A stretch of 64,000 bases of DNA from Shinella pollutisoli. GTDB taxonomy: Bacteria > Pseudomonadota > Alphaproteobacteria > Rhizobiales > Rhizobiaceae. The translations under genes were made by a program, and so were the position numbers. The notes under the pieces were generated by a model. It saw only the letters and a list, made by a program, of their open reading frames with translations, had not been told where the DNA came from and searched no databases. Positions within the stretch are counted from its first letter, which is position 1, and every line of letters starts with the position of its first letter. Of this stretch, positions 23,340-26,476 are shown piece after piece. The stretch is from positions 62,001-126,000 of the forward strand of contig NZ_JANFDG010000008.1 of the NCBI RefSeq assembly GCF_024609765.1, written 5' to 3'.

Positions 23340-25181
23340 ATGGCAGCGATCTCCCCTCCGGCGGCCAACGGCAAGGCCTATCAGTACGTGGACCACTCCT
23401 TCGACGTGATCGTCGTCGGCGCCGGCGGCGCGGGGCTGCGCGCCACGCTCGGCATGGCCGAGCAGGGCCTCAAGACGGCCTGCATCACCAAGGTCTTCCC
23501 GACCCGCTCGCACACCGTCGCCGCCCAGGGCGGCATCGCCGCCTCGCTGCAGAACATGACGCCGGACTGCTGGCAGTGGCACCTCTACGACACCGTCAAG
23601 GGCTCCGACTGGCTCGGCGACGTCGACGCCATGCAGTACCTCGCCATGGAGGCGCCGAAGGCCGTCTACGAGCTGGAGCACTACGGCGTGCCCTTCTCGC
23701 GCAACGAGGAGGGCAAGATCTACCAGCGTCCCTTCGGCGGCCACATGCAGAACTACGGCGAAGGGCCGCCGGTGCAGCGCACCTGTGCGGCCGCCGACCG
23801 CACCGGCCACGCCATCCTGCACACGCTCTACGGCCAGTCGCTGAGGAACAACGCCGAGTTCTTCATCGAATATTTCGCGCTCGACCTGATCATGTCGGCC
23901 GACGGCCGCTGCACCGGCGTCGTCGCCTGGAACCTCGACGACGGCACGATCCACCGCTTCGCCGCCAAGATGGTGGTGCTGGCGACCGGCGGCTACGGCC
24001 GCGCCTATTTCTCCGCCACCTCCGCGCATACGTGCACCGGCGACGGCGGCGGCATGATCGCGCGCGCCGGCCTGCCGCTCCAGGACATGGAGTTCGTGCA
24101 GTTCCACCCGACCGGCATCTACGGCGCCGGCTGCCTCATCACCGAGGGCGCGCGCGGCGAGGGCGGCTATCTCGTCAATTCCGAGGGCGAGCGCTTCATG
24201 GAGCGCTATGCGCCGTCGGCCAAGGACCTTGCCTCCCGCGACGTCGTCTCGCGCTGCATGACGCTGGAGATTCGCGAGGGCCGCGGCGTCGGCAGGAACA
24301 AGGACCACATCTACCTGCATCTCGACCATCTCGATCCGGCCGTGCTGCACGAGCGCCTGCCCGGCATCTCCGAGAGCGCCAAGATCTTCGCCGGCGTCGA
24401 CGTCACGCGCGAGCCGATCCCTGTCCTGCCGACGGTGCACTACAACATGGGCGGCATCCCGACCAACTACTGGGGCGAGGTGCTGAACGCGAACGGCGAG
24501 AACCCGGAGCGCCTCGCGCCCGGCCTGATGGCCGTCGGCGAGGCGGGCTGCGCCTCGGTGCACGGCGCCAACCGCCTCGGCTCCAACTCGCTGATCGACC
24601 TCGTCGTCTTCGGCCGCGCCGCGGCGATCCGCGCCGGCCAGGTGATCGACCGCAACGAGGCGGTCCCCGCGCTCGACCTTGCGTCCTGCGAAAAGATCAT
24701 GGATCGCTTCGACAGGCTCCGCCACGCGAACGGCGGCACGCCGACGGCGGTGCTGCGCGACAAGATGCAGCGCACCATGCAGGAGGACGCCGCCGTGTTC
24801 CGCACCCAGGAATCGCTCGAAAGCGGCTGCCGCCGCATGACGGCGATCTGGAAGGAGCTGCCGGACATCAAGGTCACCGACCGCTCGATGATCTGGAACT
24901 CCGACCTCGTCGAGACGCTGGAGCTGGAGAACCTGATGGCGAACGCCATCACCACGGTCTACGGCGCCGAGGCGCGCAAGGAGAGCCGCGGCTCGCATGC
25001 CCGCGAGGACTACGCGACCGGCCCGCTCGGCGGCCGCGACGACGTCAACTGGCGCAAGCACACGCTCGCTTGGGTGAACGAGGCGGGCGACGTGACGCTC
25101 GACTACCGCCCGGTCCACACCGACCTCATCGCCGACGGGATCGATCCCAAGAAGATCGAGCCCAAGGCAAGGGTTTACTGA
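23340..25181 (+). CDS. sdhA: succinate dehydrogenase flavoprotein subunit
   Basis: Catalytic FAD subunit oxidising succinate to fumarate, 613 residues. The dinucleotide fold [12 protein letters not shown] is near residue 29. The FAD-linked histidine is in [10 protein letters not shown], and the active-site region [18 protein letters not shown] is present. It is full length with an ordinary C terminus ([10 protein letters not shown]), so the ORF that follows has not damaged it. Its stop codon is one base from the next ATG. Confidence 0.98.
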
Positions 25182-25182
25182 T

Positions 25183-25692
25183 ATGAAACTTGAGTGGCGC
25201 AACGTCAATATAGAGATTGAATCATCAAGAGGTAATATACCCTCTATAGATGAATTTCTTTATATGAAGGAAAGATATGTTTATGTAATTGAAACACCTA
25301 GAGAGTTACCGATTGGCTACAAGAATGGCACATCGAATGTTTGCTATATCGACTCCTCAGGACGATCAAGTGAACGGAAATCGAGAATAAGCAACCATGC
25401 CCTCGGATGGATATCAAAATTTTTGATACTTACTCCAAGCCTAAAAAGCTTCAAGATTTCCTATTGTTACCCCCGGAGGAAAAATTTTCCTAACGCATAC
25501 AAGGATATCGAAGCTTTTCTAATCAATGAGTTTCACGAGACATTCGGTTCGACTCCATTATTTAATAAGCGGACTGAAAGAGAACTCGGTGACTACGACA
25601 TTGAATTGAATTGCTCCTTCCTTAATAAATCGCGAGCTGAGGCGAAGATCACTGCCTTTGGGCTCGCGGATGATGTGGCGATAGAGGAGTAG
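25183..25692 (+). CDS. AT-rich foreign ORF inside sdhCDAB; possible degenerate GIY-YIG-like protein
   Basis: A 169-residue product not normally found in the sdh operon. By hand count 191 of 480 bases in 25201-25680 are G or C (40%), far below the neighbours; the last 60 bases are richer. AAGGG lies before its ATG, one base follows the sdhA stop, and its last codons contain the GAGGAG that serves sdhB. The residue pattern suggests a GIY-YIG fold: Y32-V-Y34-V-I, then Y55-I56-D57 (YID in place of YIG), R65/R68 and H72, IEAFLINEF with E110, and PLFNK with N128. No known family was recognised with certainty. It could be a nuclease-like gene or an inactive relative acquired by transfer. Confidence 0.75.
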
Positions 25693-25696
25693 AAAC

Positions 25697-26476
25697 ATGG
25701 TTGAACTCGCTCTCCCGAAGAACTCGCAGATCACCGAAGGCAAGGTCTGGCCGAAGCCGGAAGGCGCCGCCAACACGCGGGAACTGCGCATCTACCGCTG
25801 GAACCCGGACGACGGGAAGAACCCCTCGGTCGACACCTTCTACATCGACGTCGACGACTGCGGCCCGATGGTGCTCGACGCGCTGCTCTACATCAAGAAC
25901 AGGATCGACCCGACGCTGACGCTGCGCCGCTCCTGCCGCGAGGGCATCTGCGGCTCCTGCGCCATGAACATCGACGGCACCAACACGCTCGCCTGCACCA
26001 AGGGCATGGACGAGGTGGACGGCACGATCCGCGTCTATCCGCTGCCGCACATGCCAGTGGTGAAGGACCTCGTGCCGGACCTCACCAACTTCTACGCCCA
26101 GCACCGCTCGATCGAGCCCTGGCTCAAGACGGTCTCGCCGACGCCCGCCAAGGAATGGAAGCAGAGCCACGGGGACCGCCTCAAGCTCGACGGCCTCTAC
26201 GAGTGCATCCTGTGCGCCTGCTGCTCGACCTCCTGTCCGAGCTACTGGTGGAACGGCGACCGCTATCTCGGCCCCGCCGTGCTGCTGCAGGCCTACCGCT
26301 GGCTGATCGACAGCCGCGACGAGGCCAAGGGCGAGCGGCTCGACAACCTCGAAGATCCGTTCCGCCTCTACCGTTGCCACACGATCATGAACTGCGCCCA
26401 GGCCTGCCCGAAGGGGCTCAACCCGGCCAAGGCGATCGGCGAGATCAAGAAGATGATGGTCGAGCGCCAGCTCTGA
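25697..26476 (+). CDS. sdhB: succinate dehydrogenase iron-sulfur subunit
   Basis: A 259-residue subunit carrying electrons from FAD to quinone. The [2Fe-2S] cysteines are in [13 protein letters not shown] and the later LAC. The [4Fe-4S]/[3Fe-4S] cysteines are in [16 protein letters not shown] and [11 protein letters not shown]. All ligands are present. The start at 25697 has GAGGAG upstream, located within the foreign ORF, so sdhB translation depends on sequence carried by that insert or left at its right edge. Confidence 0.98.

What the first reader, a model, noticed from the sequence alone, without database searches (positions are those of the whole stretch)
25183..25692. AT-rich, GIY-YIG-like ORF sits between sdhA and sdhB
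The sdhCDAB operon is normally continuous. Here a 169-codon ORF of about 40% G+C (hand count 191/480 in 25201-25680) lies one base after the sdhA stop and four bases before the sdhB ATG. Its pattern Y32VYVI, Y55-I-D57, R65/R68, H72, E110 and N128 resembles GIY-YIG nucleases with YID replacing YIG. Composition points to recent horizontal gain, while the in-frame compact fit suggests it is expressed with complex II. A nuclease-like gene hidden in a housekeeping operon could be a defence, selfish or regulatory element.
Basis: partly seen in the sequence, partly recalled or inferred. Interest (0 to 1): 0.85.

Follow-up and report, generated by a model that had tools for sequence, protein, structure and literature searches.

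The report
Nuclease-like passenger gene between sdhA and sdhB
A foreign, AT-rich gene that looks like a GIY-YIG DNA-cutting enzyme has recently settled between two genes of a core energy-metabolism operon, at a spot where related bacteria carry many different passenger genes, some of them toxin-like.

Summary
The ORF is real: 25183-25692, 169 codons, 40% G+C against 66% in its flanks, one base after the sdhA stop and four before the sdhB ATG. It is a recent gain: a family profile finds it in 1 of 21 same-genus genomes (its own), and 17 of 18 other same-genus junctions read are an 18-bp gap. Family libraries and PDB sequence searches miss it. Relatives occur on enterobacterial plasmids, in prophage-like contigs and in scattered genomes; they keep the GIY-YIG tyrosines, Arg, Glu and Asn, and a profile links them to a canonical GIY-YIG group. 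The GIY-YIG call is probably right, though this copy lacks the YIG glycine and a conserved C-terminal motif.

The premise that sdhCDAB is normally continuous fails here: 26 of 106 resolved sdhA|sdhB junctions hold inserts of 200 bp or more, of about 14 kinds. sdhC|sdhD and sdhD|sdhA hold none (0 of 61 each; sdhA|sdhB 15 of 61), and the inserts are scattered on a 61-genome tree. Best reading: a horizontally acquired, defence-type nuclease passenger in a fast-turnover slot, probably expressed with complex II. Site-specific homing is disfavoured. Activity is untested.

The parts
23340..25181 (+). sdhA, succinate dehydrogenase flavoprotein subunit
   Evidence: 613-aa ORF; its C-terminus located by tblastn in relatives; gene name by eye
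25167..25175 (+). Three silent codon differences at the end of sdhA (GCA AGG GTT; relatives mostly GCG or GCC, CGC, GTC). They create AAGGG (25169-25173), a possible ribosome-binding site for the passenger
   Evidence: comparison of junctions; RBS role inferred
25183..25692 (+). Passenger ORF, 169 aa, GIY-YIG-like, about 40% G+C
   Evidence: homologues
25282..25284 (+). Y34, aligns with the GIY tyrosine
   Evidence: invariant in A2 and A6
25345..25353 (+). Y55-I56-D57; the YIG motif position, glycine replaced or displaced by a four-residue insertion
   Evidence: Y and I invariant in A6, glycine in 9 of 10 rows, the window being the exception
25384..25398 (+). R68 and H72, catalytic-type Arg and His/Tyr positions
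   Evidence: R invariant in A6, H in 9 of 10 rows
25510..25512 (+). E110, metal-binding-type Glu position
   Evidence: invariant in A6
25564..25566 (+). N128, conserved Asn position
   Evidence: invariant in A6
25684..25689 (+). GAGGAG forming the last two codons of the passenger; likely the sdhB ribosome-binding site, as is GAGGAG in the 18-bp gap of relatives
   Evidence: role inferred
25697..26476 (+). sdhB, succinate dehydrogenase iron-sulfur subunit
   Evidence: 259-aa ORF; 93-97% identical in the same-genus genomes and in G031; gene name by eye

Best explanation
The ORF is a recently acquired single-gene passenger from an uncharacterised GIY-YIG-like nuclease family that occurs on phages, plasmids and islands. 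It landed in the sdhA|sdhB gap, which in this bacterial family is a fast-turnover slot for compact genes. It is probably transcribed with sdh; the sdhA end seems to supply its ribosome-binding site, and its own last codons that of sdhB. Most likely function: a DNA nuclease acting against incoming DNA (restriction-like but without a partner methylase, so perhaps recognising modified DNA or DNA structure). Shown here: foreign composition, absence in kin, family, conserved positions, insert turnover at the slot. Inferred: co-transcription, nuclease activity, defence role. The window copy may be impaired, because the YIG glycine and a C-terminal motif are missing.
For: HGT: 40% G+C in 66% flanks; profile match in 1 of 21 same-genus genomes, its own; 17 of 18 other same-genus junctions read are an 18-bp gap. 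Family: tblastn E 1e-8 to 5e-8 to five plasmid records; further relatives; Y34, Y55, R68, E110, N128 invariant and H72 in 9 of 10 rows; hhalign of the family against a canonical GIY...YIG group 96.8%, E 2.8e-10. Slot: 26 of 106 resolved junctions with inserts of 200 bp or more; 15 of 61 against 0 of 61 at sdhC|sdhD and 0 of 61 at sdhD|sdhA; 14 changes on the tree, at least 9 forced by well-supported branches, no more clustered than shuffled labels. Defence-type company of some relatives: UvrD helicase plus two N6_N4 methylases beside one, NERD nuclease beside another, VapBC about 3.7 kb from a third.
Against: No hit in Pfam, NCBIfam or PADLOC for the window protein, none in the PDB by sequence. 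AlphaFold models poor (pLDDT 42.5 and 36.5); no GIY-YIG chain in the 50 Foldseek rows shown, all E above 1. Family against two PF20815 members: hhalign 2%; against 30 PF01541 domains only 14%. D57 in place of the YIG glycine; conserved C-terminal P and W missing. PADLOC: best E 0.058 in any of ten family members. The junction sample is the best SdhB matches, not random; no promoter-like or terminator-like site was found, but under one of each was expected by chance, so that says nothing.
Confidence: 0.5

Rival explanations
1. Free-standing GIY-YIG homing endonuclease: it cleaves uninterrupted sdhA-sdhB alleles and is copied into the gap by repair, like T4 seg genes (intronless homing).
For: GIY-YIG-like, precise intergenic fit, conserved target genes with empty alleles in relatives; T4 free-standing endonuclease genes sit between genes and seven of them use upstream promoters (PMC2988022, passages). 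Silent changes at the sdhA end could be a co-conversion trace.
Against: Enterobacterial-type copies 79-97% identical in DNA over about 550-895 bp sit in at least eight different neighbourhoods (e.g. L029 and L031: 96.7% over 875 bp, no shared flank within 2 kb), not at one site. No relative whose neighbours I read lies at an sdh site. The slot takes non-nuclease genes.
Confidence: 0.1
2. Inactive or decaying passenger: a truncated GIY-YIG relative that landed by illegitimate recombination and persists because it happens to keep sdhB translation intact.
For: Loss or displacement of the YIG glycine and loss of the conserved C-terminal P and W; GC3 rises to 0.69 in the last 16 codons, as if the tail has another origin; one genome of 21 in the genus.
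Against: Intact 169-codon frame; Y34, Y55, R68, H72, E110 and N128 all retained although the protein is only about 30% identical to the relatives in A2.
Confidence: 0.3
3. Complex II accessory or regulatory protein that became part of sdh expression (e.g. mRNA processing of its own operon).
For: Position and compact fit.
Against: No profile match in the 20 other same-genus genomes; relatives whose neighbours were read are not beside sdh; other genomes carry unrelated genes in the slot.
Confidence: 0.05
4. Type II restriction endonuclease of the Eco29kI kind (GIY-YIG) cut off from its methylase.
For: R-x3-H spacing and E/N positions resemble what I recall for Eco29kI (recalled, no call).
Against: No methylase gene adjacent; among relatives a methylase neighbour was confirmed by Pfam only in G736, though not all neighbours were scanned; no Pfam match.
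Confidence: 0.05

Closest known systems
CMoRE (PD-T4-3), single-component GIY-YIG type IV restriction enzyme (PMC12923530; passages read)
   Same: Single gene with a GIY-YIG-type catalytic core and no partner methylase; a Y-x-Y at the first motif occurs in the window protein (Y32-V-Y34), as in CMoRE's GIYxY
   Different: CMoRE has a separate C-terminal modification-sensing domain; the other nine rows of A6 have G or C at the extra-tyrosine place; no PADLOC match. No CMoRE sequence was compared
T4 free-standing GIY-YIG homing endonucleases SegA-G (PMC2988022; passages read)
   Same: Small GIY-YIG genes between conserved genes, some using upstream promoters
   Different: Segs home; close relatives within this family sit at unrelated sites; cleavage untested
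Pfam PF20815 GIY_YIG_2 and PF01541 GIY-YIG
   Same: Distant relatives reach both profiles below the curated cut-off (best 17.5 and 16.3 bits against 22.4 and 22.6); the YIG...R...H columns align with a PF01541 set
   Different: Window protein and three enterobacterial-type relatives show neither profile at E 1; family against PF20815 members 2%
Canonical GIY-YIG group beside an ATPase-like gene (L018, L027, L028; alignment A9)
   Same: hhalign 96.8%, E 2.8e-10, with matching Y, YIG, R, H, E, N positions
   Different: 147-155 aa, canonical GIY/YIG, beside an SMC/Rad50-like ATPase gene (by eye); the window gene is solitary
In-operon passenger genes in general (horizontally acquired genes inserted into operons)
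   Same: Acquired gene placed inside an existing operon
   Different: Here one housekeeping junction holds about 14 kinds, scattered over the tree. The general phenomenon is recalled; the one paper I tried on it was not held

Membership tests
GIY-YIG nuclease superfamily | First-motif tyrosine (GIY) | tested here: met
   Y34, invariant in 10 of 10 rows of A6
GIY-YIG nuclease superfamily | Second motif YIG | tested here: inconclusive
   Y and I invariant; glycine in 9 of 10 rows, window has D57 with a four-residue insertion
GIY-YIG nuclease superfamily | Catalytic Arg, Glu and Asn positions | tested here: met
   R68, E110, N128 invariant in 10 of 10 rows; H72 position in 9 of 10
GIY-YIG nuclease superfamily | Match to a curated family model | tested here: not met
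   No Pfam or NCBIfam hit for the window protein at E 1; relatives only below cut-off
GIY-YIG nuclease superfamily | Profile-level homology | tested here: met
   A6 against A9 96.8%, E 2.8e-10, though A9 was first found with profiles of this family; A6 against 30 PF01541 domains score 25.0 over 42 columns, 100 column shuffles at most 21.7, probability only 14%; against two PF20815 members 2%
GIY-YIG nuclease superfamily | GIY-YIG fold | tested here: inconclusive
   pLDDT 42.5; strand-strand-helix-strand-helix order is what I recall of the fold, but confidence is too low
GIY-YIG nuclease superfamily | DNA cleavage | not testable with these tools
   needs purified protein
Free-standing homing endonuclease | Intergenic gene with empty alleles in relatives | tested here: met
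   18-bp empty gap in 17 of 18 other same-genus junctions
Free-standing homing endonuclease | Close relatives occupy the same (allelic) site | tested here: not met
   at least eight different neighbourhoods among 11 enterobacterial-type loci 79-97% identical in DNA across the gene; the window's own branch has no close relative to test
Free-standing homing endonuclease | Cleaves the empty allele | not testable with these tools
   needs purified protein
CMoRE / PD-T4-3 | C-terminal modification-sensing domain | tested here: inconclusive
   window protein ends 41 residues after N128, leaving little room; no CMoRE sequence was compared; no PADLOC match
Type II restriction-modification (GIY-YIG enzyme) | Cognate methylase gene adjacent | tested here: not met
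   neighbours are sdhA and sdhB
Ancestral sdh operon gene | Present at the junction in relatives | tested here: not met
   in none of 18 other same-genus junctions read; profile match in 1 of 21 same-genus genomes, its own

The most novel reading that the evidence does not exclude
The sdhA|sdhB gap of this bacterial family is a high-turnover chromosomal slot where defence and toxin-type genes, among others, are entrenched by coupling to an important respiratory subunit: losing the passenger imprecisely would damage sdhB. A GIY-YIG family unrecognised by current libraries is one of the cargoes. That would be a defence-gene location outside islands, prophages and tRNA sites.
Probability: 0.25. 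Interest if true: 0.75.

Novelty: new variant of a known kind. Interest (0 to 1): 0.5.

Why it matters
Two things could be followed up. First, a small GIY-YIG-like family that the Pfam, NCBIfam and PADLOC models used here miss, found on phage-like contigs, plasmids and beside some defence-type genes, is a testable candidate anti-phage nuclease. Second, a housekeeping operon junction that repeatedly gains or loses unrelated genes, some toxin-like, suggests a search rule for hidden accessory and defence genes: look inside otherwise invariant operons, not only in islands. If coupling to sdhB entrenches the passengers, that is a way for a gene to become hard to lose without an antitoxin.

Tried and rejected
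Library scans of the window protein (only a PHROG at E 0.29) and a PDB sequence search found nothing usable; PDB profile searches gave one unrelated chaperonin at E 1.2 and nothing. A search of 60 relatives with the window protein gave E 0.02 or worse apart from the window itself; those seven matches (L002-L008) were treated as noise. Exact-peptide scans with the window protein alone found no relative in genome or viral contigs; phage records gave none, E. coli genomes none by DNA, a further viral scan with A7 none. Two AlphaFold jobs were poor, so the Foldseek result carries no weight. A first GIY-YIG domain set failed because my motif filter kept 1 of 30; redone from coordinates with 30 of 30. 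A search for the origin of the ORF tail gave only short matches, best E 0.004. A 12-bp repeat between the sdhA end and sdhB start (25161-25172, 25734-25745) was not interpreted. The notebook and tree label 'DUF3052' for the commonest passenger is recalled and NOT confirmed: Pfam gave no match at E 0.01 for the member scanned; I call it the YSGTPL family here. 'VapD' for the Cas2-profile passengers is recalled too.

Sampling limits. The junction loci are the best SdhB matches, not a random draw. Of 116 loci (window, 18 same-genus, 10 same-order, 87 same-family), 8 had no SdhA end in the stretch; 104 gaps were resolved by the script (25 of 200 bp or more), and two it left open had been read (L056, 909 bp; L060, 51 bp), giving 26 of 106; L059 and L156 are left out. 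The 61 control genomes are the window plus 60 taken down the family ranking; G323, G166, G848 and G838 were skipped, and two of these (G323, G848) carry inserts at sdhA|sdhB. Only 10 passenger proteins were scanned with Pfam, 4 without a match at E 0.01; other passenger names, and most neighbour names, are by eye. The junctions downstream of sdhB could be read in 41-42 of 61 genomes. The tree is a quick one with SH-aLRT support only; changes may be gains or losses. Two of twelve methylase/helicase loci (L226, L235) gave no methylase match and were not counted.

Papers. Search listings; passages of PMC12923530, PMC2988022 and PMC9519451; no paper read whole. No held paper has all five terms sdhA, sdhB, 'inserted between', operon, Rhizobium; the rows listed showed none on this slot by title and abstract start, which is a narrow search.

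Full report
Observation. The 515 bp between the two genes is 40% G+C against 66% in 300-bp flanks; GC3 is 0.42, against 0.7-1.0 in ten-codon blocks of the adjoining sdhA and sdhB ends. No promoter-like or terminator-like site was found in 24900-25900, but shuffles give under one of each, so this is uninformative. The fit is tight at both ends. The last sdhA codons differ silently from relatives (GCA AGG GTT, where most relatives have GCG or GCC, CGC, GTC), which creates AAGGG nine bases before the ORF start. The ORF's last two codons are GAGGAG, the hexamer that precedes sdhB in the 18-bp gap of same-genus relatives. That these are working ribosome-binding sites is inference.

Recent gain. The window's genome holds one copy. 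A family profile finds a match at E 0.01 in 1 of 21 same-genus genomes, the window's own. Of 18 other same-genus junctions read, 17 have an 18-bp gap; the remaining one (L050, genome G017) carries a different, lipoprotein-like ORF at the same place. It is therefore not an old sdh gene.

Family. The window protein matches nothing in Pfam, NCBIfam or PADLOC at E 1, nor the PDB by sequence. tblastn to plasmid records gives five relatives (Duffyella, Pantoea, three Escherichia albertii; E 1e-8 to 5e-8). Two IMG/VR contigs, five named genome contigs (two Serratia, one each of Pseudomonas, Enterobacter, Erwinia) and scattered genomes follow: 6 of 398 genomes drawn from the phylum at E 0.001 and 6 of 397 drawn from the order at E 1e-4, the window's own counted in each. 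Of those ten other genomes, five gave the diverse members of alignment A6 (L016, L017, L024, L025, L026); three weaker ones form a separate group A9 (L018, L027, L028); L020 reads VYIG with R and H in place but was not aligned; L019 was set aside as probable noise. In the ten-sequence A6 the invariant columns include the first-motif tyrosine (window Y34), Y55-I56, R68, E110 and N128; the H72 position is kept in 9 of 10, and the YIG glycine in 9 of 10, the window being the exception with D57 and a four-residue insertion. The window also lacks a C-terminal proline and tryptophan kept in the other 9 rows. Identity to the window is 26-32% where a call gave it.

Is it GIY-YIG? For: diverse relatives read G-V-Y-(V/C)-I ... 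Y-I-G-x-G ... R-(I/L) ... E ... N; A6 matches the A9 group, which has a textbook GIYFI...YIG, at hhalign 96.8%, E 2.8e-10. Against 30 PF01541 domains the score is 25.0 over 42 columns, with the YIG...R...H stretch aligned, where 100 column shuffles average 11.9 and reach at most 21.7; the probability is only 14%. A9 against the same set gives 38% and against two PF20815 members 18%. Distant relatives reach PF20815 and PF01541 below their cut-offs (best 17.5 and 16.3 bits). Against: no curated hit for the window protein or the three enterobacterial-type relatives scanned, A6 against PF20815 members only 2%, and no confident model (pLDDT 42.5 and 36.5); Foldseek on the poor model showed no GIY-YIG chain in its 50 rows. 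A9 was itself found with profiles of this family, so one search is not fully independent. I put GIY-YIG ancestry at about 0.8 and activity of this copy lower.

Where relatives live. Eleven enterobacterial-type loci compared over 2 kb on each side share DNA over about 550-895 bp at 79-97% identity; beyond it only the two E. albertii plasmids, two umuC-linked copies (a 65% block) and one 57-bp stretch agree. L029 and L031 are 96.7% identical over 875 bp in different places. Palindromic repeats of the type tccgct...agcgga lie near both ends of several copies (by eye). Two copies are in prophage-like contigs. Elsewhere the gene lies 3.7 kb from VapBC, next to a DUF4041 protein gene, next to a NERD-domain gene and CRISPR-like genes (NERD confirmed, CRISPR by eye), on a stretch with a relaxase-like gene and integrase (by eye), and in G736 between an N6_N4 methylase gene and a UvrD helicase gene, overlapping the latter by four bases. 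In that operon the methylase|helicase junction is again variable: of ten loci read (of twelve fetched), three are continuous (2-8 bp), one has 136 bp and six carry longer, different stretches including the GIY-YIG gene. So the family is seen as a compact passenger in two unrelated operons.

The slot. Of 116 sdhB loci read (the window, 18 same-genus, 10 same-order, 87 same-family), 8 had no SdhA end in the stretch; of 106 resolved junctions 26, the window's included, hold inserts of 200 bp or more. By content, with Pfam support for six kinds, these are: the GIY-YIG gene (1), a recurrent ~145-aa YSGTPL family without Pfam match in the member scanned (8), PIN/VapBC (3, one scanned), Cas2/VapD-like (3, one scanned), glycosyltransferase 25 (2, one scanned), sulfotransferase (1), FkbM methyltransferase (1), CPCC protein (1), and six unassigned singles (L050, L055, L077, L136, L150, L157). 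In 61 genomes read over 16 kb (L200 is shorter), inserts of 200 bp or more occur at sdhA|sdhB in 15 of 61, at sdhC|sdhD in 0 of 61, at sdhD|sdhA in 0 of 61, at mdh|sucC in 0 of 42 and at sucC|sucD in 7 of 42; one sucC|sucD insert holds a PIN-like gene (by eye). sucD|sucA (15 of 42 at 200 bp or more) is normally a long gap (median 174.5 bp), and six of the nine long sucA|sucB gaps (9 of 41) hold one recurrent ~100-aa ORF, so neither is a clean control. On a SdhA+SdhB tree of the 61 the presence of an insert needs 14 changes, at least 9 forced by well-supported branches, and is no more clustered than shuffled labels (mean 13.4); sister genomes often differ. The changes can be gains or losses. 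The slot thus turns over near the tips, and the window gene is one recent tenant.

Mechanism. Most likely the gene came in on phage or plasmid DNA, entered the gap by an unknown recombination route (one 12-bp near-repeat and no recombinase gene seen at the junction), is read from the sdh transcript, and makes a small nuclease that acts on foreign DNA. Shown: foreign composition, absence in kin, family, conserved positions, slot turnover. Inferred: expression, activity, target. Solitary GIY-YIG defence enzymes exist: CMoRE (PD-T4-3) is a single-gene GIY-YIG enzyme that cuts 5hmC/5ghmC DNA (PMC12923530, passages). No CMoRE sequence was compared and the window protein has little room for a second domain, so it is not filed there. 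Homing of the T4 seg kind (PMC2988022, passages) is disfavoured by the unrelated sites of near-identical relatives, although the window's own branch has no close relative to test. A decaying, inactive passenger remains a serious rival.

Verdict. The protein belongs to a library-invisible family that is probably GIY-YIG; the more interesting result is that sdhA|sdhB in this bacterial family is a high-turnover passenger slot. I found no paper on that in the searches named, which cover only the open library and only the rows listed.

Noticed in passing
L050 (G017, same genus), between sdhA and sdhB: A second same-genus genome has a different 580-bp insert at the same junction: a 187-aa lipoprotein-like ORF, 57% G+C, with no Pfam match at E 0.01.
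   Followed up: partly
sucC|sucD junctions in L165, L170, L173, L178, L202, L211, L213: 7 of 42 genomes carry inserts of 322-1076 bp between sucC and sucD, including PIN-like and cupin-like ORFs (by eye), so a second TCA-operon junction behaves like sdhA|sdhB.
   Followed up: partly
L225, L227-L234, L236: The methylase|UvrD-helicase junction of a restriction-like operon is also variable: 2-8 bp in three of ten, 136 bp in one, longer different stretches in six, one of them the GIY-YIG gene.
   Followed up: partly
L070 (L018), L068, L069: A separate canonical GIY-YIG group (147-155 aa) sits beside an SMC/Rad50-like ATPase gene, in L068 near type I restriction-like genes (by eye); a possible two-gene defence system.
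   Followed up: no
L010, L021, L022, L029, L031, about 260 bp upstream and 50 bp or more downstream of the gene: Palindromic repeats (tccgct...agcgga type) lie near the ends of the shared DNA unit in several enterobacterial copies; they could mark or mediate its movement (by eye).
   Followed up: no
window 25161-25172 and 25734-25745: 12-bp near-identical direct repeat between the altered sdhA end and the sdhB start; may be chance.
   Followed up: no
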